A stretch of DNA of 64,000 bases from Cristatella mucedo (Eukaryota; Bryozoa; Phylactolaemata; Cristatellidae): contig WPIO01000021.1 of NCBI GenBank assembly GCA_009760855.2, positions 186,001 through 250,000 on the forward strand, in the 5' to 3' direction. Position numbers and translations under genes: made by a program. This document shows, piece by piece, positions 1-41,000 of the stretch. Below the pieces are notes generated by a model that worked only from the letters and a program-made list of their open reading frames with translations, searched no databases and was not told the DNA's origin. The number at the start of each line of letters is the position of its first letter. Position 1 is the stretch's first letter.

Positions 1-473
1 TTGCAATATAAATTTATTATTTTTAATATTTTTATTATTAGTCTCCAAAAAGGTGGTAGCGTCACTCAAAAGAATATGATCGTGTCCCAGTTTGTGCTGC
101 CGGGCAGAAGCGTTTAGTTGTCGTCACTCGAGGAGCTCATTCACAGTATTCTCAATCAGGCATCATGCATTGAGTTGTACAGAAAAATCGCCCGTAAACG
201 CAATCAGACTAGAAGCCTACGATTGATAGATCATTTCTACCCACCCCTCCCCGAACAAAAGTTTTTAGCTTCCACTCTTCATTCACCGTGGGAAAGTAAA
301 GCTCAGTTAGGCAGTAATCGATTTGTTAGCTCAGTTAGGCAGGGTTCGGTGGGGAAATTTTTTATAGTAATGAACTTTGTTTCACTTCTAAAATTCCTTA
401 ATCGCTCGCCCCCCTCCACCCGCTGGTCGTATCCCACGGTCGACGGGATGCGACTAGGTAATGCGATTGTGTC
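1..473. other. left-edge sequence upstream of the CAP gene
   Basis: No recognisable domain or repeat. There is an open stretch from 118 to 477, but it starts at a TTG and matches nothing I know. The segment may hold the promoter or a 5' exon of the CAP gene. An in-frame TAA at 459-461 precedes the ATG at 474, so the reading frame used below does not continue further left without splicing. Confidence 0.4.
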
Positions 474-828
474 ATGACGTTTTCCTGCGAAGAGTTCATG
501 GGTTCTGACCTCTCTACATGCCCTGCATGTCAGGGCTTGTCCTGCGTTAGGTACTTTAAGATATCTCAGGCCACACGGAGAGACATTTGGACTAAATTTG
601 AAAGGGATGCTCTTGTAGCGCACAACGAGTACAGAAGGCTTCATTCGGCGCCACCCTTGCAGCTGTCACGCAGGCTGTGCAAAATGGCCGACTCTCACGC
701 GAAGTGGCTAGGGGCAAACGACATCTTTGAGCACAGCAAAAAGGAAGAAAGAAGACACGGCGATAGCGTGTGCGGCGAAAACCTTGCCGAGTCCGTCATA
801 TGGTACGACGACTGGAAACCATTAACCG
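474..828 (+). CDS. CAP gene exon 1 (5' limit uncertain)
   Basis: Encodes the N-terminal half of the CAP domain. It ends ACC-G before a gtaatc donor at 829, leaving phase 1. The 32 residues before the homology start (474-569) are Cys-containing and not family-like. If the acceptor-like ctcag at 565-569 is used, the exon is 570-828. Confidence 0.75.
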
Positions 829-3800
829 GTAATCAGAGCACTCTAGCTTTCCGGATAACCGCGCGAAATGCTTTAGAAATAGGCGTCTAGTTGTAGCCAC
901 TTGCGTGCCCGTTTCACCTCACGTCGCGGTGATGACTAAGAGTCTGGCTGCAGGATTTCAGTCACTGCGTGCGCTCCGCTCCGCGCGTTTTCGTCGGAAA
1001 CTTAGGTCTAAGCTCAAAATAGATTGAATATGCCGGTGAAGCTTTTTCCTATAAATTGCCAGGCATCGTACGCGAACCAATGAGGCCAACTTGATACTCT
1101 GTCTCTCAGATAGCGATCCTTTTTTGCGTTCTGCATGCAGTAACTTTGAAATAAGTGTCGTCCATCTGCTGCCATTTTCTTACGCTTGGATAAGCATTGT
1201 GTGACGTCAAGATCCGGCTGCTAGTAATTAAACGTTTCATAAGTCTGTAGGCAGAAACTAAATTCTTCAAGAATATTCGATCAAATTCTAATGCTAGCGC
1301 CGCTTCTGTCAACTTTAGTCTAATCCCATTGCACATGCTCGTGCTCTAAAACAATTTACTCACTTAAAGACATCTCAATAGTGTACGAAGTCAGTTTATA
1401 TTTACGATTTTCTCGCAAAGCAAGCTGATGGGTTCTTTAATTCTTTTATTTCCTGCATGCCATATCGATCAGCTTCTTACGCACGGCCGCTTTAGTAAGC
1501 ACGCTTGCATTAGCTGACTACAAAGTGTGATTTACACCTAGGGTACAATCAAATTTATCTTTTAAAAGCCCCAAGCTAAGATGAGTTCGGGCAATTTCAC
1601 AGCACCCATTTCTGCAATGCATCAAGCAAACATGCCATCAGACCGCTTCAAATGTTTTTGAATGTGTGAGTAACTTCTCACACGCTGCCATCAATCTCGC
1701 TCAGCTTTTGGAACTCGGTAGGTGAAAAGCACTTGTCTCTATTAACAGCTTTAAGGCCGTGATTTGTCGAAGTAAGTTTTTATATTGCCACTACGTTCGC
1801 TAACTTGGCACATGACGTGACGTCAATGGCCAACATTAGCTTATCATTGAATGTAGAGATGTAGGCTACAGCAAAGCAGACAGCTCAAAGCTATTCAAAA
1901 AAGTTGTGGCTTTACCGGTTTGCTGCCACTGGCAGGCAGGGTAATGTCAATCAATCTTCAGCATCCTCCAGCCGGTTAAGCCCACCCCTCTATAACTGCC
2001 ATGAAAGCATGAAATTTGATTAATTTGGCAGGACCGCCTGCAATATGCTAACATCAATCGAGAGATCTTAATAAATCTGTAATGCATCTTATAAGACTTA
2101 TGAACCGACAGTGAAAAAACTTACTAGATTTGACCACATTTTAAAGTTCGCGTGATTTCTACTTAATTAAATCCAACTCAGCCTTCATTTTCAAGGTGAG
2201 AGGCACCGAATTACAGAAAGATTCTTGATGTAATACTTCATTTAAATCATTATTTATTAAATAATTAGTTTTATTTAGAACAAGCATGGCTGGGGGAGAC
2301 ACCAAAATATAGAAAAATTATTGACTTAGTACTTCATTTTTAAATCACTATTAATTAACTAATTAGTTTTAACTAAAACAAGCAAACTTTTGACAATTGA
2401 CTTCACGCTTTATGGTTTTGCTGTACATACATTCTTATATCCGTCATTAGGCTGCATGCCGGAAACTGTGAATTACTGAAAAACTATAATTTCCTTGAGA
2501 TCCGTAACAAATTGCATCATTGTGAAATTAATATCATTTTTCAAATCAACATTGAAGGCAATGCTTAGGCTTTGTCCTTAGCAGTCAATCTAAACCAGCC
2601 TAGGCATGAATACCTGTGGTAAACCATGAATTTTCCCGCGAATTTAACATCATTTACTATTAAGTTACAGTGTTATTTACTTTTGCCGAGATCATTCTAC
2701 GCATAAACATATTTTGCCATCGCATCAGAATTAATTTTTTCATTTAGTCAGTGAACGACTAAATTTTACTATCGATTGCTCGGATTAATATTTCCCTGTC
2801 ATTCTAACGGGAGACTGTAATTCGAGCGGCCCTTGAAATATTCTGCACGTCGGTATTCTGGGCTGGATCCTTTTCTTTAGACGATTTGCCAATGTAATCA
2901 TCAGGCTGCACAATCTTGACTTTCATTGTTATGCACATGACATCCAGCTTTGATACTCGTGCTTTGTATCATTCCGGTCTTCCAGCTCGTCAAGAGCTCT
3001 TCCCAGATTAAATGCCGATAAAACAAACTTACGAGCTATGAGCAAACCTAGCGTGACTTCAGCAATTTGAAAAATGTAACCCTCAAACTGGGCTCGGCAA
3101 GAATATCTCCTGTAGTATCTGAAGGAAATCTGGGTTTCGTGTTTCAAATTGATGTTTCACTAGACGACCACATCAGGTCCACAGACAAGTCTGCCTCTCT
3201 TTAGTTACGTAACACTGCAAACATTCGGACCTGCTTAGACAGGAGTACCATCTTCCAGATAGTGCACGCATTTGGAATATTCGGTCTCGAGATCTATAAC
3301 TGGCCATTTTCAGGCCTTAGTGTCATTGAAATTATTTGATTAAAATTGGTGCAAAACTCAGCATCTAGGGGCGTCGAACTCAAATAATGATAATACTAGC
3401 TGATTTAACAGCCCCTTTTACATAGTGACAGAAGAGTCATTACTGCTATCATCACCGCTTGCAGTGGCGATTAAGAATCACCAAACGCAGGATTCGAACC
3501 CATGACCTCGGGACCAAGGTCGTGAAAAGCAACCGCCTTAGCTAGTGTGGTATCACGGCTCACCAAACTCGAAGGTCGCAATTGTCACTTCACACTACTC
3601 ATTCCCTTTGCAGCAAATGTAAAGCGCCTAGAAAGAGATTAAGTTCTCTGAGGGCGCTTTATCAAGTACATTATTATTATTATTATTACCAACCAGCACT
3701 TGCCCCCCATCAATTACCGCATCTACTTTAAGGTTTTGTCGCTTGCTTTTACTTTCCTTATTCTCTCACTTGTATCCAGCCTACCAATCCGAATTACTTC

Positions 3801-8400: not shown

Positions 8401-11323
8401 TGCACTAACTTATTTTTTAAAGGTTCGTATGATCTACTCCTGAGTTACATCTTTGTTGCATTACTTAATTTCGTAATAAAAATAATTATGAGAGGTTCAG
8501 TCCTTATTAAAATCTATTCATATCAAAGGTACTACTTCAACTAGGTTGTATGCAGCAATAAATTTGCTAAACTCTAATGCAAACCAGACTTAAGCTTATT
8601 AATGATTCGATGGACCTTTTTAGCTCACTCAATAAGATTCACTGGGGCGTTAGATATCTGCAGATTGAAGAGTTTGGTTAATCTACAAGCTAAAGAACTG
8701 TTAAAACAGTGACATTGACTCTTAAAATGTATCATTGAATCATCGTAACACTTTTGCTTATATCAAAATATAGCTTACTTAACCCTTTTTGTTCGTGCCA
8801 ATTTGCATACCGATTGTACCGCTAGTCTTAAGAGACTTGTCAATGAATGTGCTTAAGGGAATCTGAATCCCATCGAGTAATGCATATCTACCCGGCTCTA
8901 TTCACTTCCCTCTTAAGAAGTACTGAAAATTTGTGATGTCATTTTTGTCAACATTCTTAGCACGCTATTGTGTATCTAAGGTACATAAAAACGCTAAGTA
9001 ACTTCTTACGAGACAGCATCTCCAGGATATATATAAAAGGGATAGTCCACATTTGGCTGAAAATTCATTCCACTCAGTACTTGTACGAATTGCGATGCAC
9101 TGTGGCCGGGCCTGTAATAATCAATCAGGATTTTATGTAAGACCTAGAGAATTAATTTGAGTTAATAATGATAATAATAATCTATTTTACGTAGCCCCTC
9201 AGAGAACCCAATCTCGTTCTAGGCACTTTACATTTGTTGCAAAAGAAGCACGACCGAATGGTGAGTGGTAGCATGCTCAGTAAACAACAAGAATAACATG
9301 GTTAGGGTTGACATGCACAGGGTCAGTATGCAAGTATTGTAGGTGGGAGCACGCACAGTGTCAGCACGCATAAGCACATAGAGGTCGAATCACGGGGACC
9401 CACCAAATGCTGTTATAAATAGATGCGCTTTTACTTTCTTTTAAATTTGGTCAAGTGTGGAGATTTCATCGCAAGTCGGGAATGATTTCCAGGCTTTAGG
9501 AGCATACAACTAAGGCACGGTCTCCAAAGGATTTGAGGTGTGTACGAGGTGTGGGCAAACAATTAGATTCCTGAAATTGGGTTGTACAATGCTTAGCCTG
9601 GTGGGGAAGTAGATCGGAAAGGTAGCATGAAGCCAAAGAATGAAGGGACCTAAAATTGGGTGATAAAACCTTGAATTCAATGCGTTGCTTGACTGGGAGT
9701 CTGTGACGGTCGGTGAGAAGTGGTGAGATGAGGTGGTAACTACGACGCTCATTACATACAAGCCTTGCAACAGAGTTTTGCACCAGCTGTACGGACCTAA
9801 ATGCATAGGTGGTAGACCAACAAGCAGTGAGTTACAGAAGTCAAGACGGGATGTGACAAATGCGTTTGCCAATTTAGATGTGGTATCCCTGTCTAAACAA
9901 GCCGAATCTCAGCAATGTTACGTAGCTGAAAGTAGGCAGACTTGACTGTGGAGGTGATGTGGTCGTCTAATGAAAGATCGTTTTGGAACGTGACACCTAG
10001 ATTTTGTGTAGATTCAACATAGGATATGCTGGCAGAGCCGATTTTGAGTGTTTGCCTATCCAATTTCTGGCTCACACTTGGTTTGCCCGTAATTTGTAAG
10101 TTGGTTGTCTCATCATTCAATTTAGGAAACCTTGCTGCCATCCGCATGTGGATGTAATCAATACATGCAGCAAGAGAGTTGAGAGAATTTGACTTGCTCG
10201 AGGGTTGGAGAGGATCAAAGCAAAGGTACAGCTGAATGTCATCTGCATAGAAGTGAAAGCCGAGATTGTGCTTGGCAATCACATCGGCTAGAGGGACAGT
10301 ATAAACCGTGAAAAGAACATGACTAAGCACAGATTCCTGGAGGTAACTCATATTTCAGAGGTTTTTCGGATGATTTTTGTCCATTCTTATCAACACTCTG
10401 GAGTCTCCCACTGAGATAGGACTACTGCAATGAGGTCTGTTTATTATCAGAATTATGAGACAAAAACTTTATAGTGTGAATAATCATTCCAGAAATGCCT
10501 AAAGTATGCAGTTGGTGAGTCTAGTTTATAGCAGCATTTTGGATGAATAAATAAAATTCATTTGCATAGCGCCTAAGAGAACTGAATCACTATCCAGGCA
10601 CTTCACATATGCAGCAGGGCTTGAACCCACGACGTTTGTCATCAAATTGACTTTGACCTTGGTCACTAAAGACAAGCATCTTAACCGTTAGGTCAAACCA
10701 GGGTGGCATCAGATTGACTCGTGTGGCAACCATGTCACGTCGTTAAATTATTTGATTAAAAAAACTTGTGCTGATCCTGACTGTTAGGACGCTGTGGTTA
10801 GTAGGCTTCGGCTATAGCCTGCACATTAGTGTGTATTTGCTGCCTCTACTATGAGTCTGCAGCCATGCTTTGGGGCTGTTTATAAACAATGACTTGCATT
10901 ACGCATAGCGATTTTTTGCGAAGCGTTACTTACAGAGTGATTATGAAAACGACTCATTTCACAGCAATTCGCCGCATTTGTTACAGAGCGATCCCTCTGT
11001 CTTTTTTTTGCATACTTAATGCCTCGGAATCGCCCAATTGGCTTAGTAACTATTTCAACTCGCTTGCAGCTCAATTCACGCAGCTGGTATGGAAAAAATG
11101 CAGGATGCTCGGCATTGCATACGTCGAGTATGAGCCACCGAACCACAAGGGATTCGTTAAGACGATTGTCGTTGCAAACTATTATCCGGGCGGCAACAGA
11201 GATGGAGAATTTGAGGAAAACATTGATCCTTTACCGAACGTTAAAATTAAAGGCCATCTGGCTAATAAGCTTGACGAGTACGAAAAAAAGAAAACCAAAC
11301 TGAGGCAAAGAGGTCTTTGGTAA
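474..11323 (+). CDS. CAP-superfamily (GAPR-1/GLIPR2-like) gene, three exons
   Basis: Exons 474-828, 4170-4247 and 11070-11323 join in matching phase (1 and 1) into one open frame of about 228 residues. The CAP fold landmarks appear in order: AHNEYRRLH, CGENLA, LWYEEGKSYDY, FTQLVWKKC and VVANYYPGGN, followed by GEFEENIDPLP, which resembles the end of GAPR-1. A lysine-rich tail of about 30 residues follows, longer than in GAPR-1. GAPR-1-type proteins are membrane-associated, non-secreted CAP proteins, and no convincing signal peptide is visible here. In the family, two His and two Glu line a metal-binding cavity. Three are visible (His at 732-734, Glu at 777-779, Glu at 4199-4201), but the fourth position is Gln (11072-11074). 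The start is uncertain: ATG at 474 is the first after an in-frame stop, but homology begins near 570, just after a possible acceptor (ctcag), so an upstream first exon is possible. The CAP assignment is firm; the exact N-terminus is not. Confidence 0.85.
829..2210 (+). other. CAP intron 1, first part: no feature seen
   Basis: AT-leaning intron sequence. I see no repeat family or domain in it. Confidence 0.5.
2212..2388. repeat. diverged tandem duplication, about 100 bp period
   Basis: The block starting at 2214 (agaaagattcttgatgtaat, then acttcattt and an attagtttta...acaagca end) recurs about 98 bases later from 2312 with substitutions. Both copies end in acaagca. Confidence 0.6.
2390..3124 (+). 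other. CAP intron 1, middle part: no feature seen
   Basis: AT-rich and without recognised elements. Confidence 0.4.
3125..3686 (+). mobile_element. LINE family 1 (CR1/L2-like) fragment with nested SINE-B
   Basis: The translated plus strand around 3140-3280 reads like the RT C-terminal region of this LINE (FQIDVSLDDHIRST, CLDRST...VHAFG). Around 3350 it reads LVQNSAS before a SINE-B interrupts. After the SINE comes the family 3' end (3597-3686): the hairpin tail and an ATT-rich end. Internally deleted and full of stops. Confidence 0.75.
3372..3565 (-). mobile_element. SINE-B (tRNA-derived), minus orientation
   Basis: On the minus strand a tRNA-like head (GTGATACCACACTAGCTAAGG as A-box region; GGTTCGAATCC as B box) is followed by a body with GCAAGCGGTGATGATAG and a tail ending in GGCTGTTAAATCAGCTAG. 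The same layout recurs at 27501-27684. It sits inside a LINE fragment, so it is younger than that LINE. Confidence 0.8.
3690..4135 (+). mobile_element. LINE family 1 3' fragment
   Basis: The open frame at 3700-3897 reads as a decayed LPPINYRIYFKVLSLAF motif, matching [16 protein letters not shown] of the better copies. It is followed by a degenerate hairpin tail (ccctaggaagagatttagttctctt) and ends just before the second CAP exon. Confidence 0.7.
4170..4247 (+). CDS. CAP gene exon 2
   Basis: It follows ttattgtag and precedes gtgaga. It encodes RDASRLWYEEGKSYDYEKSQ and on to FQPEC, matching the WYSEIKNYNF segment of GAPR-1 and carrying the conserved second Glu (4199-4201). Phase 1 at both ends fits its neighbours. 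Confidence 0.85.
4248..4599 (+). other. CAP intron 2, first part: no feature seen
   Basis: AT-rich intron sequence without recognised elements. Confidence 0.4.
4600..5290 (-). mobile_element. LINE family 1 fragment, decayed
   Basis: The minus-strand frames give NHKSFGDPVACSYALKAWNS (compare [20 protein letters not shown]) and, further up, GSISISPV...KYLSLDDHI. The hairpin tail remnant (aatctctctttctaggcactc) is at about 4616-4636. Confidence 0.7.
5391..5473. repeat. (CT)n microsatellite
   Basis: A nearly pure TC/CT run, interrupted by ttttta and ttca. The Leu-Ser and Arg-Glu open frames across it are translation artefacts. Confidence 0.95.
5529..5568. repeat. second (CT)n microsatellite
   Basis: A shorter CT run with one CG interruption. 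About 300 bases of CT-biased then unremarkable sequence follow up to 5870. Confidence 0.9.
5871..6141. repeat. AT-rich minisatellite, six units
   Basis: Six copies of a unit that begins aaagatagggttatttcact and ends in an (AT)n run. Unit length varies (about 45-56 bp), mostly through the dinucleotide tract. Confidence 0.95.
6356..6419. repeat. 16-bp tandem repeat, four copies
   Basis: Four consecutive copies built on accagcttagt (spacers attcg, attag, cttga, ctctt). Confidence 0.9.
6420..7835 (+). other. CAP intron 2 segment without recognised elements
   Basis: Short unrelated open stretches only. A small (AGT)n run lies near 7097-7111. Confidence 0.4.
7838..7975 (-). mobile_element. SINE-A (tRNA head, LINE-like tail)
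   Basis: On the minus strand a tRNA-like head (GACCTAGTGGTTAAGG; GTGGGCTCGAGCCC as B box) is followed by a tail GCGCCCGAACGGCAATTACG, then TTCTCTTAGGGC, a decayed form of the LINE 3' hairpin. Confidence 0.75.
7976..9160 (+). other. CAP intron 2 segment without recognised elements
   Basis: AT-rich. No domain or repeat family recognised. Confidence 0.4.
9165..10445 (-). mobile_element. LINE family 1, 5'-truncated copy with YADD region
   Basis: It begins on the plus strand with aatgataataataat and the hairpin tail (the LINE 3' end) and runs to the RT core. Minus-strand frames show LGFHFYADDIQLYLCFD (the catalytic YADD motif), TLKIGSASISYVESTQNLGV, LSLDDHI, ARLVCNERRSYH and LPVKQRIEFKVLS. Several frameshifts and stops make it inactive. 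Confidence 0.9.
10548..10712 (-). mobile_element. SINE-A
   Basis: Minus strand: GGTTTGACCTAACGGTTAAG (A-box region) and GTGGGTTCAAGCCC (good B box), then the LINE-like tail GAAGTGCCTGGATAGTGATT ending in GAATTTTATTTATT. Confidence 0.85.
11070..11323 (+). CDS. CAP gene exon 3 (terminal coding exon)
   Basis: It follows cgcttgcag. It encodes AQFTQLVWKKCRMLG through the C-terminus and ends in TAA at 11321-11323. The canonical G-H-F-T motif at its start reads A-Q-F-T. The last residues are charged (LDEYEKKKTKLRQRGLW). Confidence 0.88.
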
Positions 11324-11775: not shown

Positions 11776-12262
11776 TAGAGCTAGTGAAAAACTCTGCTGC
11801 TAGGCTTGTCTATCGTGAGCGTCACGTCTGGAAATCACTCCAGAGTTGCGTCACAACATCTCCAGACTTGACCACATTTAAAAAGAAACTAAAATCCCAT
11901 CTATTTACAGCAGCATTGAATGGGTCTCTGCGATTCAACCTCTATGTACTTATGCATGCTGGCACTGTACATGCTACCACTAACAATACTTGCATGCTGA
12001 CCTTGTGCATGTCACCCCTAACCATGTTATTCTTGTTGTTTACTGCACATGCTTACACTAACCACTCCATCATGTTTCCTTTGAAGCAAATGCAAAGTGC
12101 CTATAAAAAGATGTTATTCTTGTTGTTTGCTGCACATGCTTACACTAACCACTCCATCATGTTTCCTTTGAAGCAAATGCAAAGTGCCTATACAAAAATT
12201 GAGTTCTCTGAGAGTGCTATATCAAATGTACTATTCTTGTCATCATTATTATATGTGGAAAA
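11776..12262 (+). mobile_element. LINE family 1 3' fragment with internal duplication
   Basis: The plus-strand frame reads KNSAARLVYRERHVWKSLQS (internal deletion), then PDLTTFKKKLKSHLFTAALN. It ends in the tail agtgcctata...gagttctctgagagtgc and an ATT-rich end. Confidence 0.85.
12024..12196 (+). repeat. 87-bp tandem duplication inside the LINE 3' end
   Basis: Copy 1 starts atgttattcttgttgttta at 12024 and copy 2 starts at 12111 with the same text. They differ at very few positions. Confidence 0.9.
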
Positions 12263-23000: not shown

Positions 23001-26000
23001 TAATTATATTATATTTTCTAGATTTGCTATTTCTGTAGAGCCCATTTGCGGACATTAAAAGAAGCTAGCAGCAGATGACAGTGTGGCGTCCAAAGTTGAT
23101 GCAATAGCCCTGCGAGTAATGCTTGCGGCGAAAATTCTGTGGACTGCTTTTATTAAACTCAATTCTCGCTACCACCAAATAAATGTGTTGAGTTGTTTAA
23201 CTATCGGCGTCTAGAGACGTATAGAAAAGAATTATGTTGACGTTGTCACCGAGAATAATCGTAGATATCAATGGGAAGGACCATTTAAGCTGGAAGGGCT
23301 AACATAACATGCAAGATGCTGAATCAGCGGTTGGATTAAGTGGCCAGTGATCTCCTCCCATAAATTTCAATCTCCATTATTTGAGATATATGAGAGTTTA
23401 AAATCAAAAAGACAATTACATTAGAGGTGTTAAAGTATAATTTTCATACCTTCCCATATCCTGAGGTGTAGACTACCTTTTGCACCTGGGACAAAGTTAC
23501 AAAGGGCGCGCCCTTCCTTTGTCAAAAATTTCTTGAAAATAGCTCCGCCACAGAAGAAATGGAAACGACACACGCTAGCAGGCATATTGATTCAAAAAGG
23601 TTCTATTATTTTTGGTAGCGTACAAGGTAGCTATCACAGCTTTAACTTAGGTGAATTTTTTCTGGCCTTGAACGTGGCAAAGTGGTTTATTACAATTTGA
23701 AAGTCAATACTTCTTTTGTTTCTTCCTCTATGTTTAAAAAGGCCGAATCAGACAGCCTATCTTGCCTAATTGATGCTCTCTGATAAGACAGCATTATCTT
23801 CAGCTTGCTAAAGGAACGTTCACAACTGGCAACTTATGCAGCTATGGTGAGGATAACTTGGCAGGCAAATCTTAAATTACGAAATATCTTTATAACTGGC
23901 AATTAAAGACATAAGTTCAAGTGGGGTCTTTGGTGCTGAGTCGTGACGTCTGGCAAGAACCATATTACAGTCACATATTTCGTTGAAAGCTCTGTTTCAT
24001 CGACGTCTGAACAATACAAGACTCAAAGATCTAGACATCGCTGTCTGAGTTTGGTCTGGTCAAGTTTTTTCAAAAGCTTTCTATGTGGTCAAAGTCTTTC
24101 GATGCGGTCAAAGCCTGACGGTAAAAAGAACTCTTTTAATGGGCAATTACTTTTTTATGGTTTTCTACACTTGCTAAACCCATTTGCCAATTCTAGTGGC
24201 TATGGGTAATTTAGGGTGGACATAGGGAAGAGCGAAACACAGATGCAACATGCAGACTGTTTTGAGGGAGAGTAGAATAGCCAGGTTCTGCAAACTTCAT
24301 GCCCGTAGGCAAGTTGCCTCTTGAACCAGGCTCTGCTCATGGCTCGACCACCTTTCCCAACAAATGGACCTTCTTTGTTCTGATGCAGGTTTGATCCTCG
24401 TAGTGCTAGTTCAGTTCGAAGTGGCTGCGGAATGCCGTAGTGTAAAAAAGGTTTTGTCAAACTTCAGGTTGCCAATATAATTCAGGGTCATCACTGGTGA
24501 AATTGCGTAGACTCTTTATCTACTTCTCTTGTGGTAGTGCTTGCACCCCTAATGCACCCCTAACCTCCAAATGTCGACTTTCTTTGTCTTCACAGAGAAA
24601 ATCTTTTCATGAAGCTTTCACCTAAGCGTTTATTTCTCCAGCGTTATCGTGCTATCTGCGTTCACTCTTTTTACTCCTTGTGACAGTCCTCCGCACGACC
24701 TGTCGTCAGGCTGGGTAGCGCGACCGAGCAACAAGTCTGCTGGCTCCAACACCAAAACCTTTATTTCAAGCTACATCGGCCAAGCGCAGTCTGCACACAC
24801 TAGACGGCTGCTGGCGTCGAGGGATCTCGCCCTCCCCTCCCGTTGTCCTCTTTCGGCAACCTTTATATTCCATTCATGCTGTTCCATATTGCGTGCTATA
24901 TCCCATACTTGTTTTTCGCACCGTCCATGTTGTTTTTCGCACTTTTGGGCCATTGTTCGTTCCGAACCCACCCGACAGCTGGCGGCAGTTTGTGGTAGAT
25001 GGATGTCCCACAGATGCCGCCAATGCATGAATTTGGGCAGGACTGTCGAGCCATCTGCCGAGTCATCGTCTGCCCTCCATCACTCGCGAGCTTTCGGCTG
25101 CTTGGGCAGTCTGAGAGCCCTCATAAGGTCTCCGCAGACTGCAAAGTCATGTTCCCTCACATCCCTCTCCTCCTCGTCAGACAACAGACCAGTGGTCTGT
25201 TGTCTCAAATTGGGGCCGGTCTCCAGTGCCCAGTCCTGCTTCGATCCTTTGACGAGTGGCCGACTATGCACGCGGAAAACCGTCAGCGTCCCCGTTGAGC
25301 CTTCCGGCCTTGTGTCGCACAAGGTATCGAAAGGGTTGAAGGGACAGACTCCAGCAAGCAAGCCGAGTATTGCTCTCTTTGAAGCTATCCAGCCAGGTCA
25401 GCGACCTCTGGTCTGTTTCCGCGATGAACGGACGACCTAACAGGTACACTTCAAAAGCTTGCATGCCTTACCATATCGCCAGACATTCCTTCTCGACCGT
25501 GGGGTATCTTTCTTCCCGAGGCAACAACTTCTTACTATAGTGTAGCGCCCGGCTGGCTTTGGCTGAATTTTAGCGCGAACAAGAGCTGTTCGGCGGCGGG
25601 CTAGAGCCCCTTTGTCCTGGAGCAGTGAGCCAGAGAGGAGCGTCAGTGCGGTTAGAGAGGAAGCGCTTAGGAGCAGGCCAGGAAGCTCTGAGACGAGCGT
25701 CGGCGATTCGGCCTTTAGAATTGGTCCGATACTCGCTTTTAGAGGAACGAGTGCCCGACGGCGTCGAGGCGCAGAGCCGGACCAAAGACAAAAGACACGA
25801 GGCAAAAGACCCAGAGCGAGCGTCGCTCGACTCTTAAATACTTGGCTGAGACAATGGGGCAAGAGCTTAGTGGTATTGGGCCCGGACACCTTGGCCCATT
25901 ACGGAAAGGAATGACTACCGTTCCCAGGCCACTGGCAGGGCACCTCCGTCCAGCTTGAATGGCGAATGGGTTCCAGAAGATTCTTTCTTGGAAAGAGGGA

Positions 26001-29000
26001 AGGCGGGGGTTGACAGGCCAGCCAACATCTATCAGCAGCTTCCGCGAGTATCGGACCAATTCTAAAGGCCGAATCGCCGACGCTCGTCTCAGAGCTTCCT
26101 GGCCTGCTCCTAAGCGCTTCCTCTCTAACCGCACTGACGCTCCTCTCTGGCTCACTGCTCCAGGACAAAGGGGCTCTAGCCCGCCGCCGAACAGCTCTTG
26201 TTCGCGCTAAAATTCAGCCAAAGCCAGCCGGGCGCTACAATAGTACGCGACCGGATGGTCGTCTCTTTTATCGTCCAGCTGGCTCAAGACAGCTGCGATC
26301 CCTCTGTCGGATGCATCCGTCTGGAGCAAGAACTCTCTTGAGAAGTCCGGGTTCCTTTGAATGAGGGCTGAACAAAGCTTGTCCTTTAGGGTCTGGATAG
26401 CTGTTTCGCAGGTGTTTGTCCAGCACATCTTCTCTGGGGCCGCTTTCCGGGTTAGGTCGGTGAGTGCCGTGGCTACAGCCGCATACTCGGGTATGAATTT
26501 CCTGTAGTACCCGCTGAGTCCTAAGAAGTCTCGGACGTGAGTTTTCTTTATGGGCCTCGTGAACTCCTAGACGGCTTGCACCGTGTTCTGACCCAACTTT
26601 ACGGATCCACTTCCCACTGTCTGACCGAGATACGAGCAACGAGGCACAGCCATTTGATATTTCCTCGGATTGGCCGTGAGGCCTACTCGAGACAGTCTCC
26701 GTGGTACTGCCTGCAGGCGATCCAAGTGTTCTTTCCAGGTTTTTCGGTGTATAACCAGGTCATCCAAATATGAGCCAGTTAAGGCTTCCTGTCCTTGGAG
26801 GACCTGATTCATTGGTCTCTGGAATGAGGCAGGTGCTCCCTGAAGACCAAAGGGCATCATCAGGAATTGATATAAGTCGGCTCCTGCCGTGGAGGCTGTT
26901 ATGTGCTGGCTATACTCAGCCATCGGGACTTGCCAGTATCCATTTGTGAGGTCCAATGTGGTAATGAATCGGGCCTGTCCCAAGCAATCGATTAGGTCTC
27001 CGATCCGTGGCATCAGGTAGGCATCCACTCTTGAGAGTGCATTCACCTTCCGGTAGCCTATGCAGAGGCGTAGGGTGCCTTCTTTTTTTTGGCACCACCA
27101 CTATGGGTGAACACCAATCGCTGCTCGACCGCTCAATGATCCCCTCCTCAAACATATCCTTTATATCTTGCTGCACCTGTTTCCTGAACGCATGGGGGAT
27201 TCGGTAAGGTTATGACTGTATGGGTCGCGCGTCCCCGATGTCGATGCGACGCTCGACCAAGCTCGTGCTCCCTGGCTGCTTGATAAACACCCCACTGTAG
27301 GTGTGCAGTAGTGCACTGAGCTCCTTGACCTGCTCGTTCGTCAGCTGGTCTCCCATCGTGGGCTCCTCGGAGTTAACTACGGCTCCAGCCTTTTGGCCCT
27401 CGCTCCTTAGCCAGGCTGGTAGCTCCTCTATCTCCTCGCTGGTTTTCTGGGTCCAGCTCGCCGACCCCTGCACTTGATGGATCGCCCGTAGCATGTTGAT
27501 AAATAAATAAGTTCTAGCTGATTAAACAGCCTCTTTATTGTATAGCGACAGAAGAGCCTTTAAGGCTATCACCACCGCTTGCAGTTGCGATAAAGAATCG
27601 CCCACTGCAGGAATCGAACCCACGACTTCGGGGCCGAGGTCGTGAAAGCAACCGCCTTACCTGGTGTGCCATCACGGCTCACCGTGATGTGGAACACCCG
27701 CCGACGCTTTCGGGCGTCGTGCATGTCCACCGCATAATTGACTTCCCCCATTCTCTCAGTAACCTCGTAGGGCCCCTGCCATTGAGCCCACAGTCTATCT
27801 GAGCTGGTCGGCAGAAGAACGAGCACGCGATCCCCGAGATTAAAGTTGCGGCTCCTTTCGTTCCGATCGTAACAGGTCTTCTGACGCCTCCTTGCGTCTT
27901 CAAGATTATGCCTGACTAGTTCACCCATACTTTCCGTTCTCTCTCGAATGGCTAAGACATGAGACATGACATTCTGCCCAGCCTGCCTATAATAATAATA
28001 ATAATATTGCACTTGATAAAGCGCCCTCAGAGAACTTAATCTCTTTCTAGGCGCTTTACATTTGCTGCAAAGTGATACGCAATAGAATAGTAAGTAAAAT
28101 CATGCTTGAAAAACAAACAAAATGAATAACATGGTTAGGGGTTACATGCACTGGGTCAGCATGCAAATGTGGTTAGTGGCAGCATGAACAGTGTCAGCAC
28201 GCATAAGCACATCGAGGACGAATCACAAGGACCCACTAAATGCTGTCCTAAATAGGTATGTTTTTAAGTTTCTTTTAAATGTGGTCAGGTCAGGGAATGT
28301 TCTGATGCAGGTCGGGAGGGAGTTCCAGGCTGTGGGAGCATACGAGCTAAATGCACGGTCTCCAAAGGATTTAAGGTTTGTACGAGGTATTTCTAGACTG
28401 TTGGATTCCGAAAAGCGAGTGGTACGATGCTTTGCCTGATGGGGTAGTATCTCTGAAAGATAGGCTGGAGCCATAGAATGAAGAGACCTAAAAGTGAGCG
28501 ACAAAACCTTGAAGTCAATCCGTTGCTTGACTGGTAACCAGTGCAGGTCGGCGAGAAGTGGAGTAATGTGGCAACTGCGACGCTCACGACAGACAAGCCT
28601 AGCTGCAGAGTTTTGCACCAGCTGCAATCGCCTGATCGCACATGCTGGTAGGCCAGTAAGCAGTGAGTTGCAGAAGTCGAGACGAAATGTCACGAATGCA
28701 TGGACCAACTTGGACGTGGTATCCTTATCTAAACAAGCCCTAATTTTAGCAATGTTATGAAGCTGAAAATAGGCTGATTTGACTGTGGAGCTGATGTGGT
28801 CGTCTAACGAGAGGTCGCTTTGGAATATGACACCTAGATTTCGAGCTGATGCAACTGGAGATATGCTGGCAGAGCCAATTTTGAAAGTCAGCCTTTCCAA
28901 TTTCTGAATAACACTAGGTTTGCCCATAACTAGTAAGTTAGTTTTATCATCGTTTAGTTTTAGAAAATTTGCTGCCATCCATGATCGGATGTCATCAATG

Positions 29001-32000
29001 CATGCAGCAAGTGAGTTGAGAGAATTCGAGGTGCTCGAAGGCTGGGAGGGATCAAAGCAAAGGTACAACTGAGTGTCATCCGCATAGAAGTGAAAGCCTA
29101 GGTCTTTCCCATGCCTCCTTAAGGACATCCAATGGGCCCCGAACGTTTCGGTCATACAGCAGCGCGAACGGCGAGAATCCCGTCGATGCTTGGGGGACCT
29201 CCCTATAGGCAAACAAGACCTACGGGAGTAATCGGTCCAATCACCTCCTTCTTGGTCCTCGGTCTTTCGCAGTATTGTCTTCAACGTCTGGTTGAACCTA
29301 TCAACCAGGCCATCTGTCTGGGGATGGTAGGGACTGGTGCTGAGCTTTGATACGTAGCAGTCTGTATAGCTCCCTCAGCAACTTCCCAGTGAAGTTCGAT
29401 CCTTGATCCGTTAGGATCTCTTTGGGTACTCCTACCCGAGAGAATATTTCAATAGGCTCCTTGGCTATACTGGCCGCATCAATCTTTCGAATTGGTATGG
29501 CTTTCGGAAACCGAGTCGCGTAATCACAGACCACCGGGATGTACTCATTGCCCGATCGGCTCCTGGTGATTGGGCCTACGAGGTCCATGCCAATGCGCCT
29601 GAAAGGCAAATCCATTATTGGTACAACATACACTCGATTTAATCCGAATGCCACATTATTGCAAATTTATAACATCGTTATCAGTGGCTGAACTCATAAA
29701 ACTTGAGACATGTTTCCCTTAGAAACTTCGGTGCCTTCGATCAAACGGGCGAAAGAAAAAGCACAAAACATGCCTGTATTAATAATAATAATAATGCACT
29801 AGATAAAGCACCCTCAGAGAACTCAATCTCTTTCTAGGTGCTTTACATTTGCTGCAAAGGGAAACGCGATTGAATGGTGAGTAATATCGTGCTTGATAAA
29901 CAACATGAATAACATGGTTAGGGGTAACATGCACAGGGTCAGCATGCAATTGTGGTTAGTGGCAGCATGCACAGTGTCAGCACGCATAAGCACATCAAGG
30001 ACGAATAACAGGGACCCACTAAATGCTGTCCTAAATAGGTGTGTTATTAAATTCTTTTTATATGTGGTCAGGTCAGGGGATGTTCTGACGCAGGTCGGGA
30101 GGGAGTTCCAGGCTTTGGGAGGGAGCATGTGAGCTAAATGCACGGTCTCCAAAGGATTTGTGGTTTGTACGAGGTATTGGTAAACTTTTGTATTCCGAAA
30201 AGTGGGTGGTACGGTGCTTGGCCTGATGGGGGAGTAGATCTGAGAGATAGGCTGGAGCCAAAGAAGGAAGTGACTAAAAGTGAGCGACAAAACTTTGAAG
30301 TCAATCCGTTGCTTGACTGTTAGCCAGTGCAGGTCGGTGAGAAGTGGTGTGATGTGGCAACTGCGACGCTCACGACAGACAAGCCTAGCTGCAGAGTTTT
30401 GCACCAGCTGTAATGGCCTGATTGCACATGCCGGTAGCCCAGCAAGCAGAGAGTTACAGAAATCATGTCGGGATGTCACAAATGCATGGACCAACTTAGA
30501 TGTGGTATCCTTATCAAAACAAGCTCGAATTTTAGCAATGTTATGTAGCTGAAAGTAGGCAGATTTGACTGTGGAGCTGATGTGGTCGTCTAACGAGAGG
30601 TCACTTTGGAACATGACACCTAGATTTTAAGCTGATTCAACAGGAGATATACCGGCTGAGCCAATTTATCATCGTTTAATTTTAGAAAATTTGCTACCAT
30701 CCATGTGCGGATGTCATCAATACATGCAGCAAGTGAGTTGAGAGAATTTGAGGTGCTCGAAGGCTGGGAGGGATCAAAGCAAAGGTACAACTGAGTGTCA
30801 TCCGCATAAAAGTGAAAGCCTAGATTGTGCTTGGCAATCACATCAGCAAGAGGGAGAGTATAAATCGTGAAAAGAACTGGGCCTAGCACGGAGCCCTGAG
30901 GTACCCCATATTTCAGAGGTACCTCGGATGATCTTTGTCCATTCACGTCAATACTCTGGAGTCTGCCACTGAGATAGGACCTGAACCACTGCAGAGCAGT
31001 GCCAGTGATGCCCAGGCTAGATGAGAGGCACTCTAGAAGAAATGTGTGATCGATAGTATCAAAAGCTGCCGAAAGATCAAGCAAAACAAGCAGAGACACT
31101 CTACCTATGTCTGCATTCTTAAGTAGGTCGTTGTACACCCTAAGCAATGCTGACTCTGTGGAGTGATTAGCTCTAAAGCCAGACTGGAACTTACTAGCAA
31201 GGTTTGAAGTTTCAATATATGACTTCAGCTGGTCCGCAGTGTTAGGTAGGGTAAAAGTGACTATTGTATGTGCATAATGCAATTTATCGTGGATTAATAG
31301 AAACTTCTACCTAATAGAGCCTCCGTTTAATATTTACTATGTAATTCGCTTTTACAGAACAATTATTTCCCATTACTGGCTATAATCAAATTGTAGTCAG
31401 TAAAGTGCCCAAAGTTAAAGCCTGAAACTCTTTTTCAATTTAGTTTTTCTGCTGAGATCACATGAATTCTTTCAGTAAATAACATTCCTCTTGTTTGCAT
31501 ATTTTTGGTAGATTCGACAATATGTATTCTAGCTTCGACGTTTATTCTTGGAATCCGTGTGTAGATTACAAGGAACTTGACGATGATGGAAACGCCGAAG
31601 GCTGCGGAAAGATTGCCGTAAGCTGCTTTAACACAGTTGCGGCAAGGCTTACTGCTACTTTACGTGCTTGTCCTCAGCGAGCCGTCATGACCATTATTAA
31701 ATATCAAAAAAGGTTCGCACTGACGTTTTTTGAAAGCTTTAAGTTGCACATTTTTACAAGAATCGTGGAGCTCTGCGGGACGTACAGGTGCAACGTGCGC
31801 ACGCGAATTCATCGTGCCGCCGCCCGGAAGAGCCATGCAAGTAGTAATAATAATAATAGTGCACTTCATAAAGCGCCCTCAGAGAACTCAGTCTCTTTCT
31901 AGGCGCTTTACCTTTGCTGCAGAGGGAAGATAATAAAAGTAATCTCTCGTTTATAGCCCCTTAAGAGAACTGGCTTTCTTGGCGTAAGAACCTTGTAACG

Positions 32001-35000: not shown

Positions 35001-38000
35001 CCATGGCACCTTAAAAATTCAGAATGCATGAGCACATAAAGGACAGCGTGCTGTGAAAATTAGCTGCGTTGTACTACGTGCAGAGTGTAAGTGCCATAAC
35101 TATCTTCCTTTTCGAAGGTATCATAAGGCATCATAGCAAAAATAATGCTTTAAAATACGAGAGATTTTTTTACGTTATTTTAAGGTCTAAATTGACGACA
35201 AAGTAATCAGGCTCATTCTTTCAAGTGTAAATCCCTATAGATTGACCAGTGCTTGGGGGCCATTGAACAGTTGTCAGGTTGATCCCTGACCTCGTCTCCC
35301 CGCTCCCCCGCTTCATTCAGCAGAATAGGCCCACTATCCAACAACCTGTATCGATCGGCTCACCGGCACTTGCTTCACGTCCTCAGCTGCTTGCTCAGCG
35401 GAATAATTTGAAATAACTGTCTTGTAAACAAACCTATTGACGATCATATCCTAACAGTAATCTAAACGGACCCCCTAACACATTTCCTTCCGCGACGTTG
35501 ACTGTGAGCTATTGAAGTTAACAGGCCTAAGATGCTTCCTTTACACTTAAAATATTTTGGAAATGAGTAAATAAACTTAGATTTGCTTACATAAGGATAA
35601 AAGAACTTGAGTACGTGTTAACTGACCACGCTCCTAAAGATTTGCTTGCATCAATTCTTTCACGAGAGAGCCTAGTTTTACAGCAATGCGGACGTGAAGG
35701 CTTAACCTAAGAATCTCTACACAAAATTGGATATCAAATTTTTATATTGAGGCACAAGTTTCACAATCTCTTTTTTCGAGTGAGATAGCATGGGAATACT
35801 CTGACTATCACTTCACTTGGATGCAAACTTCCTATTTGTTCGTCGCTAGTGTTCTCGAGCATTACGTTTTACGAATTTGGCTGATTCACGTTTAGCGATC
35901 TATAAGAAAAATTCTGAATACATGTATTCTGATTTTTAAATGAACTACCGTCGTACTACTTAAACTTAAATTTTGATTGCAACTTCAAACCTGCTCCAAA
36001 TAATCATCAGTAGCAGCTGCCTTGTTATGAAGCTTATATAGTTAAAGGAAATGCTAACGGTTGGTGATGATAGGATTAAGTACCTATGACCGGGCTTTAA
36101 CACAAACTTATTTTTTATCTAGGGCATTAGATCGTATTTTCTAAACTCAATGCAACTAATTCTAATGATTATTTCTTTGTCTTTAAGGCGTGTCAAAAGC
36201 ATTCTTCGGGGTTTTACGGTCTAGGAACCCAGGCATCAGCATCATTTATAATAAATTCTGGAGGCTACGTTGAAATTCAATACAAATCACAATATGGAAA
36301 CAGGTGAGAAGACCTAATAATTTTATGAGTTCTTGGGCGTAGCTATTTCAGAAGATTTAGCAGTTTACTTCGACCAAAGCCCTAGACATTTACTTTGCAT
36401 GGTTTATCTCTAATATGCCAAATTGCTAGTCTTTTATTAAAAAATCTTAAACATTAAAAGAGTTTATTATTTGAAACTCTTTGGTGATTTCATATCACCG
36501 GTCAAGGACTTTTTAGAGTTTCTACGTCGTAAAATACCACCTCATTCATTGTATTTTTTATTAATTTTGTTATATTTTAAGATTCTAACTATAGGTCCGT
36601 TATGGCTGCTGCTGTTTGCTCATGTCAATCTTCTCAAACCGAATAAAAGATGCTTTCCAAAATCATCTTGCAAAAATCATCTTTCCAACGAAGGACTTAA
36701 AACTACAGGCACTGATCGGTTTCCTTTAATTTAGTGCATGCCGCAAAGCGCATTCTTAGCAGTTTTTGTCAGTATTTCCTATCGAAGAAGACGATACTAT
36801 TATTATTAGTGAGAGCTTTTTATCTGTTCTAAAATGTATTCAAACAGCATAATACCTCATTCTGACTTTTTCATGTCACTCTTGCACCTAAAATAGATGG
36901 AAAATTATCTTAATTTAATAATAATAATAATAAAAGGCAGATTTTCAAAGAGCCTAAAGAGAACTAAATGTCTATATAGGCGCTTTACCGCTGGCTGCAA
37001 AAGAGTCAATAAACAATGGTTAGGGGTACGCAAGGTATTATGCTTAGGCAATGACCCAAAAGCAAGCAAGTAGCATGATTGTGCCAACGCGAAAGCACCC
37101 AATGAGACACTACGATCCCGGTTAGCAGGACCTCTGGCTAGTAACAGGATCTGAATCCTGGACAAGTAGGCGTGTAAAACATACAGAGACAAAAACGAAA
37201 ACTTCACTTGGGCAAAATGAAATAATATGGGATCGTCTCCTGTGGGGACAGAAGCTTTGGGTGAGTTCCAGACCTTCAATACATGCTGATTGAGTTTGAC
37301 ATCGGTTGCACACGGTTAATGGCAAAGGCAAGGAGTGCCGTAGAACGTAAATTGCAGCAATCTAGACGCAATTTCAAAAATTTGTTAACAGATTCGGCAA
37401 TCGTAATCTTGTAATAATAATAATAATGCACTTGATTAAGCGCCCTCAGAGAACTTAATCTCTTTCTAGGCGCTTTACATTTGCTGCAAAGTGAAATGCA
37501 ATTGAATGGTAAGTAAAATCATGCTTAAAAAACAAACAAAATGAATAACATGGTTAGGGGTGACATGCACAGGGTCAGCATGCAAATGTGGTTAGTGGCA
37601 GCATGCACAGTGTCAGCACGCATAAGCACGTGATGGACGAATCATAGGGACCCACTAAATGCTGTCCTAAATAGGTGTGTTTTTAAGTTCCTTTTAAATG
37701 TGGTCAGGTCAGGGGATGTTCTGACGCAGGTCGGGAGGGAGTTCCAGGCTTTGGGAGCATACGAACTAAATGCACGGTCTCCAAAGAATTTAAGCTTTGT
37801 ACGAGGTATTTCTAGACTGTTGGATTCCGAAAAGCGGGTGGTACCATGCTTGGCCTGATGGGGGAGTATATCGGAGAGATAGGCTGGAGCCATAGGATGA
37901 AGGGACCTAAAAGTGAGCGACAAAACCTTGAAGTCAATCCGTTGCTTGACTGGTAGCCAGTGCAGGTCGGCGAGAAGTGGTGTGATGTGGCAACTGCGAC

Positions 38001-41000
38001 TCTCACGACAGACAAGCCTAGCTGCAGAGTTTTGCACCAGCTGCAATCGCCTGATCGCACATGCTGGTAGGCCAGTAAGCAGTGAGTTGCAGAAGTCGAG
38101 AAGGGATCCTGGACAAGTAGGCGTGTCTAAACATGCCCTAATTTTAGTGCCGCTCCTTATTTGGAAGAGGCTGACTTAGCTGTAGAAGAATTTTGCTCAT
38201 CCGAAATAAATTAGTCTCCTGAACAATCTAAAATAGCAGCACGGTAATAATTAAATTAGAACTTGTATATCCTCGAAATACCGAAGGGCTAGGATTGCAA
38301 ACTAAAAGCATTATGACACGTTGCCTTTGAAAAAGAAATTGCATAGCTACAGCTAATCCGACAAGAATTTAATAGCAAGCACTAGCACAAAACTTAGCAA
38401 GTGCATCGTATTAGGGAAGCATATTGCAGTAGCCACTGCAATATGCTCCTATTGGAAAAAAAACTAAAGTCTTAGGACTGGATCGCTGACCGAATTCTGC
38501 CAGGTCCATAGATAGCAACCAAGCGGTAACTTTTGGTCCCATTTCTTTATTCCATTCAGTGTGAAAATGGCTCGCTTGCAGAACTGGGGGCAATAATTCA
38601 GAGCATTTAGTGATATGTGTAACCTGGATGAATGTCAGCCGACTCTGGTATGCGACGTGGGCTGAATAATCACTCTCCGGTATAAGGTAATAGCAGATAA
38701 AAGCTCTTTTGGTTTCATTTTTTTTCTTGACGAGCTAGAACACACATAAACGAGAATCTGCGCACATTTAAATGCCAGCATCACGCTCTGATGAGGTATC
38801 CTGCACTCTACGAAGAATAGCATGACTCTCTGAACATGACTCTCAGAGCATTGATGTAGACCACCCTAATTCTGGTTATCTAAGAGAATTAGATGAACAA
38901 ACCAGGTCAGTAATAAATGTAGGAGCCAGTTGCTTCGCTGTGGGAGTCCTTCAAACAAGATCTTCCACATCGAGCCTTGAGTGATACGGGCATATTTGGA
39001 AGTTCAAGTATTTTTTGAGCGTGTATTTATTTTTTCTGGATCGGTCAATAGATTGTGCCTAATTGCAGTCTCTACGTTGATTCATCTTTGCACCCAGCTA
39101 AATATGTGGGATTCGTAGTCTTTTGGAAATAAAACGCTACAGCTTTTAAAGTAATCCAACTGAGTCCTAACCTGGAAAAAAGAGATTAAGAGCGCTTCCT
39201 TTGACGGCTCATATTTTAAAATGCTGTTATGTCTATGGGCATCATGATGATGAATTTCGTTGCTTGCTTTTACCGAAGAACAGCCGGAAGTCACTCCTTG
39301 CTCAAGGGAGTTTTGGGACACGTATCATATACTTTTGCACTGCCTCTGAAACAGCTGGCTGGTATAGTGCAGCACGTTCGCGCTTCGCCGATATGCTTCG
39401 ATTCTGGCAATAGATATCCTGCCACTTTGTGATCTAAAACAGCGAGGATTTTATGATTAATATATATCAGTGAATAAAAACTATTTGCAATTTGCATTTT
39501 TCAGAACGGCTCACGTGCAGCTCCAGTGTTTGGCGTCGCAACCTACTACCATCGTAACAGCTAGTGGCGAGAAGCAACCAGATAATTATGCAAGTAGACT
39601 GACGTTTCATTTTCTTTTCAAACTCCTCTCGAAATATCAAGACGCCGCTATACTATTTTTTCTTGCTAAGTCTGCAAGTCATTTGTATTGCACGCGTCAG
39701 TGTTTGATACTCCATCAAGAAGCGTAGCTCTACACCGTGGTAATGAAGTTCGAAGCTCGCAGTCGAAGCGAAACCTATAAAGCAAGGTTGCTGATAGCAA
39801 TGGACAAGGGCTTTAATGTGGACTACCTGGCGATCTCTTTAGGAACGTTCCAGACTACAGCAGTGAATTTTATAATCGGCCGCCTTATTTACATGCTAAT
39901 CTCCGCGTTCTAGCATTGTGTCCCTTATAGTTGGGCCTCTCGTATTCATGCAGTTGCCATATCTAGAAGAACTTATCAAATCCTCTCACTTTTTCTTTTC
40001 TTATAGTCTTTTTGATTACCAAAGCATATGCATTTATATACTTATATAGTCTATATTTAAAGTCGGTATAACCATTAGCGCTTAGCACTCATCATGTATC
40101 GGCATCTTAGTTATATCGGCAACCGCACCAAGCAGTGCCTCTTTCAAGAACACAAGCCACAAGCCCAATGGAATAATCTCTCAAAAGCCTTTAAGATCCA
40201 GTGACGGAGCCAGGATAGGTCTGGGGGTAGGTCTAGCCTAAACTCTTTAGCCTAGTTTGCAAAGGAGCAGCTCTCACTGATAGCTACAATCGCGTGCATT
40301 TTGCTCTATTTAGTTTTAACTTCTCGCTTCAAGAGCCTCAGAGTAACAGAGGGAGGAGGGGTGCGAATCTACCCATGCAGATTAGCTGGGACCCGTTAGC
40401 TAAGTCGCAGAAAGCGATGGAATTAATCTGACAGCGAGAACTGATTTCGTCCTAAGGTAGCCTTAAACTGAAAGCTATCCCACTGACAGGAGACACGAAC
40501 TGGCCAGTAGGCCGACTAATTCGCCACGCTAACCAGGATGCTAGGCTGGGAGGCATGCGCAGAAATGCCGTCAGCTAAGGGTTTCAAGCAAATAAACGAG
40601 ATAGATGAACCGAAGAATGGCCCCCAATAGTTGGGTCCGAGAGAATAACAACTGCGCAAGCTCTGGAGCTCAGCTTACGTAGCTCAAGCCAGCGACTACC
40701 CTTCGAGAGAAGCGAGAGACCGAATCTGCGGCAACGAAAAAAGGAGTCTAACTTGGACTGCACAGCTGCGTTCCTGTGGCTACTCAGCTAGCATCGTGTA
40801 CCTTGGTGGGCTGTGGTGGTCCACCTTCAAGGTGCGAACAGTCGCTAACGATTTCGGAAATGTTTTAATATCTACTATACCGCGATTTCAAGGATTCTTA
40901 TAGTTTCAACCGTTAGGATCGCTTTTCGTATCATAAGGCGCTTTTCACGGCGAATAACTTCGTACTAACCGACCCACAATAAGCAGTTGGTTTTGGCGCC

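What the first reader, a model, noticed from the sequence alone, without database searches (positions are those of the whole stretch)
25541..26239. 699-bp element with 196-bp perfect inverted arms, TG...CA ends and a 4-bp target duplication
The arms (25541-25736, 26044-26239) appear identical, so the insertion is recent. The ends TGTAGCG.../...CGCTACA are LTR-like, the ATAG duplication has the size produced by an integrase-type enzyme, and it interrupts RNase H cleanly. LTRs are normally direct repeats; here the matching parts are inverted around a unique 307-bp core. It may be a head-to-head LTR pair, a retroelement with inverted LTRs, or a foldback element mobilised by an integrase. It matches no class I know well.
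Basis: partly seen in the sequence, partly recalled or inferred. Interest (0 to 1): 0.82.

Follow-up and report, generated by a model that had tools for sequence, protein, structure and literature searches.

The report
Miniature Ginger-like inverted-repeat DNA transposon
A short, recently inserted jumping-DNA copy with long mirror-image ends sits inside an older, broken retrotransposon; its retrovirus-like tips and four-base target duplication fit a known but uncommon class, the Ginger DNA transposons, so it looks like a new family of a known kind rather than a new class.

Summary
Arms 25541-25736 and 26044-26239 are identical (196 of 196), identity stops at the first base on both sides, and the flanks carry a 4-bp duplication, ATAG. 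A related RNase H protein runs up to one edge and resumes at the other with one shared residue (P0063): a clean insertion, not a palindrome artefact.

Inverted LTRs fit worse: the arms' inner ends are not CA.

Two things keep the filing provisional. The target fits neither the Ginger1 motif nor, in register, the Ginger2 motif (1 of 6). No partner or second copy is shown: the own-genome search did not complete 12 of 12 times, and searches elsewhere found nothing.

Best reading: a young non-autonomous Ginger-type element, nearer Ginger2, in an unidentified, probably animal, genome. New member of a known kind; modest interest.

The parts
25537..25540 (.). left copy of the 4-bp target site duplication ATAG
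25541..25736 (+). left terminal inverted repeat, 196 bp, begins TGTAG (fits TGTNR)
25737..26043 (.). unique 307-bp core; no Pfam match in the two in-element ORFs tested; no protein relative for the ORF that spans it
26044..26239 (-). right terminal inverted repeat, identical to the left one, ends CTACA
26240..26243 (.). right copy of the target site duplication ATAG
26207..26566 (-). interrupted Gypsy-type RNase H, upstream part (RT_RNaseH profile positions 1-38); the reading frame runs about 33 bp into the element
25264..25540 (-). interrupted Gypsy-type RNase H, downstream part (RT_RNaseH profile positions 62-105 in 25264-25464; protein matches start at 25539-25542)

Best explanation
A young non-autonomous (MITE-like) cut-and-paste DNA transposon of the Ginger type, nearer Ginger2 than Ginger1. 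Shown: perfect 196-bp TIRs with TGTNR tips, a 4-bp TSD, no coding match found in the ORFs tested, and a clean insertion into an older Gypsy copy. Inferred: a Ginger transposase (an integrase-like DDE enzyme) encoded elsewhere in the genome binds the TIRs, cuts the element out and joins its 3' CA ends to target DNA across a 4-bp stagger, and repair of the gaps made the ATAG duplication.
For: arms, TSD, boundaries; insertion edges from related proteins; no coding match. (PMC2836005, parts 1 and 2 of 5 read): Ginger1 TIRs 40-270 bp with 4-bp TSDs; metazoan Ginger2 TIRs about 50-180 bp with 4-bp TSDs; TDD-4 and TDD-5 TIRs 260 and 297 bp with 5-bp TSDs; TGTNR in both groups; a 252-bp element Ginger2-1N1_NV listed with more than 50 copies (from its size and N name I take it as non-autonomous), and non-autonomous copies reported for Ginger1 in the lancelet. 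(PMC10045372, passages): TSD 4 bp for Ginger1, 4 or 5 bp for Ginger2. (PMC4455052, passages): Repbase classifies non-autonomous DNA transposons largely by termini, TSDs and TIRs.
Against: The target does not fit the reported preferences: ATAG is not CCGG or CCGT/ACGG (Ginger1), and the 6-bp site TATAGT matches RTATAY (Ginger2) at 1 of 6 positions in register on either strand, below the window mean of 2.1. No transposase and no autonomous relative was seen. No further copy was found, but the host genome could not be searched. Only five terminal bases are available here as a superfamily signature, and Gypsy LTRs share them.
Confidence: 0.65

Rival explanations
1. A non-autonomous TIR DNA transposon of another superfamily with about 4-bp TSDs (Sola1/2, Academ, Chapaev, IS481EU or an undescribed one), whose TGTAG tip only happens to resemble Ginger.
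For: The target fits neither Ginger motif. IS481EU also has TNT..AYA or TGT..ACA ends and about 4-bp TSDs in some families (PMC10045372, passages). Sola1/2 and Academ are recalled, not looked up, to give TSDs of about 4 bp.
Against: Chapaev ends are invariably CAC...GTG (PMC4079192, passages). IS481EU TIRs are mostly under 50 bp and it is reported from parabasalids. Sola and Academ termini were not available to compare.
Confidence: 0.2
2. A product of an LTR retrotransposon: two copies of part of an LTR in inverted order, inserted by the retroelement's integrase.
For: TGT...ACA ends and 4-bp TSDs also occur in LTR elements (Se_Saci2, PMC12471100, passages; animal Helenus TRIMs have 4-bp TSDs, PMC10886601, abstract). 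Five CA-near-TGG sites, as a PBS would need, occur in the core on the two strands, though none was compared with tRNAs.
Against: Inner arm ends are not CA. The two tips of a normal LTR element are different sequences (U3 and U5); here they are the same. No other copy of the arm in the window.
Confidence: 0.09
3. Assembly or cloning artefact producing a false palindrome.
For: A single copy seen; reads were not available.
Against: Exact TG/CA edges, a TSD, and flanks that continue the same RNase H homology on both sides; in plasmids and phages only one 32-bp piece each, at E 0.2 and 0.7.
Confidence: 0.02

Closest known systems
Ginger2/Tdd DNA transposons (252-bp Ginger2-1N1_NV as short example)
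   Same: TGTNR tips, 4-bp TSD in the animal members, long TIRs, short derivatives, AT-rich target
   Different: Longer than the 252-bp Ginger2-1N1_NV; target not RTATAY in register; no transposase partner known; the TIR sequence itself could not be compared
Ginger1 DNA transposons
   Same: TGTNR tips, 4-bp TSD, TIR 40-270 bp
   Different: Reported TSDs are CCGG (75%) or CCGT/ACGG (24%); here ATAG
IS481EU
   Same: TGT..ACA-like ends, about 4-bp TSD in some families
   Different: TIRs mostly under 50 bp; reported from parabasalids, while this window looks animal
LTR retrotransposons and TRIMs
   Same: TGT start (TGTNR in most Gypsy LTRs), 4-bp TSD in some
   Different: LTRs are direct repeats, each TG...CA; here the repeats are inverted and the inner end is not CA

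Membership tests
Ginger superfamily | termini TGTNR...YNACA | tested here: met
   TGTAG...CTACA (definition)
Ginger superfamily | TIRs of about 40-300 bp | tested here: met
   196 bp, identical
Ginger superfamily | 4-bp TSD (4 or 5 bp in Ginger2) | tested here: met
   ATAG; no other length from 2 to 12 bp matches
Ginger superfamily | Gypsy-integrase-like DDE transposase, own or in an autonomous partner with the same TIRs | not tested
   no Pfam match in the two element ORFs scanned; a partner needs the host genome, and the genome search did not complete 12 of 12 times
Ginger1 | CCGG or CCGT/ACGG target | tested here: not met
   target ATAG
Ginger2 | preference (not rule) for RTATAY targets | tested here: not met
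   TATAGT, 1 of 6 on either strand; one site cannot measure a preference
Chapaev (EnSpm/CMC) | CAC...GTG termini | tested here: not met
   TGT...ACA; definition
LTR retrotransposon or TRIM | direct terminal repeats, each TG...CA | tested here: not met
   repeats inverted; inner ends ATACTCGC
Sola, Academ | superfamily-specific termini and transposase | not tested
   no terminal sequences in the papers or passages seen

The most novel reading that the evidence does not exclude
The element belongs to an undescribed integrase-mobilised group with LTR-like tips on long TIRs and its own target preference, neither Ginger1 nor Ginger2; such a group would bear on the suggestion in PMC3601003 (passages) that LTRs may have arisen from TIRs like those of Ginger.
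Probability: 0.1. Interest if true: 0.55.

Novelty: new member of a known kind. Interest (0 to 1): 0.22.

Why it matters
It shows that an apparently classless foldback element with retrovirus-like ends has a ready home. Ginger elements link DNA transposons and LTR retroelements, and a copy with identical arms suggests recent activity of such a system in this genome.

Tried and rejected
Second copy in the window by blastn with the element, core and arm: besides the element itself only chance pieces of 36 bp or less. Exact patterns of 23 to 48 bases in viral contigs, 3 scans, and genome contigs, 2 scans: 0 matches each; these collections are viral and prokaryotic, so this says little. Plasmid and phage blastn: one 32-bp piece each, E 0.2 and 0.7, taken as chance. 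Protein searches in the hope of other copies, with a chance ORF spanning the core and part of the right arm (141 candidates, none at E 10 or less) and one spanning most of the left arm and the first 55 bases of the core (no candidate): none. Rfam at gathering threshold and ARAGORN on the window: none. The LTR-pair idea was set back for the inner arm ends, Chapaev for its termini, a Mutator-type foldback for the TSD length (9 bp recalled, not checked). Literature search for inverted or head-to-head LTRs: 0 papers with 3 of 5 terms; the combination was strict, so it is no proof of absence.

Full report
Observation. The element at 25541-26239 is 699 bp: two arms of 196 bp that are perfect reverse complements (196 of 196) around a 307-bp core. 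The match stops at the first base outside and inside. Directly outside lies ATAG on both sides; of lengths 2 to 12 only 4 bp is duplicated. The chance that two 4-mers of this window agree is 0.0045. As a single strand it folds into one long hairpin, z-score -39 against 20 shuffles, which only restates the perfect arms. No differences in 196 positions means arm divergence is probably under about 1.5% (rule of three, my calculation), so the copy is young, unless the arms are homogenised. G+C is 60% in the arm and 56% in the core, against 54% in the 500-bp flanks and 43% in the window.

Setting. The window looks like animal nuclear DNA, with CR1/L2-like non-LTR retrotransposon copies (the clade name is recalled; RVT_1 matches) and a degraded Gypsy-type element on the minus strand (RVT_1, RT_RNaseH, rve). 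The host was not identified. Of the 120 relatives of the Gypsy RT only two rows show an organism, a fish (Cirrhinus molitorella) and a sponge (Amphimedon queenslandica). Eight of the 120, chosen from the 12 whose row lists an RNase H domain, were compared with the window. In 4 of 8 (P0013, P0063, P0100, P0119) a piece resumes at 25539-25542, the left edge. In 3 of those 4 the other piece ends at or near the right edge (P0063 26240, P0119 26240, P0100 26222, which runs 18 bp into the element), with 1, 2 and 7 residues shared by the two pieces; for P0013 it ends earlier, at 26594. The other 4 (P0004, P0005, P0012, P0031) matched on the right side only, ending at 26321, 26240, 26303 and 26243. 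P0063 is the clearest: residues 1-257 up to 26240, residues 257-278 from 25539. So nothing of RNase H is lost there, as expected of a simple insertion with a TSD, and not of an assembly palindrome.

Coding. Neither of the two in-element ORFs scanned (25742-26206 and 25902-26213, minus strand) has a Pfam match at E 0.1; other ORFs of the element were not scanned. Chance ORFs over core and arm have no protein relatives. The element is therefore taken as non-autonomous.

Classification. Bao and colleagues (PMC2836005; I read parts 1 and 2 of 5 and passages) define Ginger transposons: Gypsy-integrase-like transposase, TGTNR termini like Gypsy LTRs, 4-bp TSDs, long TIRs. Animal Ginger2 members have TIRs of about 50-180 bp and 4-bp TSDs; [quoted passage not shown] A 252-bp Ginger2-1N1_NV is listed with more than 50 copies. 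The present element matches termini, TIR length and TSD length. It does not match target preference: ATAG is not a Ginger1 target, and TATAGT fits RTATAY at 1 of 6 positions on either strand. The target lies in a 10-bp palindrome, TACTATAGTA, with the TSD one base off its centre (my reading of the flanks printed). Repbase classifies non-autonomous DNA transposons largely by these features (PMC4455052, passages), but the 11-base terminal comparison it uses could not be made here. Ginger elements are also reported from bivalves (98 elements in one survey; PMC10294476, passages).

LTR reading. The tips alone suit an LTR, but an LTR begins TG and ends CA, and these arms end ATACTCGC inside. Both outer tips are the same sequence, while a normal LTR element shows U3 at one tip and U5 at the other (established knowledge). 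Five CA-near-TGG sites occur in the core; they were not compared with tRNAs, so a PBS is not excluded.

Limits. No second copy, autonomous partner or polymorphism is shown. The prokaryote and virus collections that were scanned would rarely hold an animal transposon. The Ginger assignment therefore rests on anatomy alone.

Verdict. A real, young insertion with, most likely, an ordinary mechanism: a new non-autonomous family of Ginger type. Interest modest, with a small chance of an undescribed integrase-mobilised group.

Noticed in passing
25264-29654 (-): The interrupted Gypsy-type element has integrase (rve 29301-29654, C-terminal domain in 27569-28012) upstream of RT (26567-27043) and RNase H, all on the minus strand: the Copia-like order recalled for Gmr1-type Gypsy elements. 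Not tested whether these are one element.
   Followed up: partly
27984-28881, 29771-30667, 37412-38101: Closely similar non-LTR-retrotransposon-like stretches in direct order: first and second 89%, first and third 95%, second and third 90% identical over the parts aligned; the first lies largely between the two integrase pieces.
   Followed up: partly
462-887 (+): CAP-domain (cysteine-rich secretory protein) coding stretch, E 4e-7; the ORF at 10886-11320 looked by eye like a further CAP exon but had no Pfam match at E 0.1.
   Followed up: partly
9278-9307 and 12016-12045: The only other perfect inverted repeat of 20 bp or more with arm starts within 3 kb (30 bp); it lies within a longer inverted match of 82% identity.
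   Followed up: no
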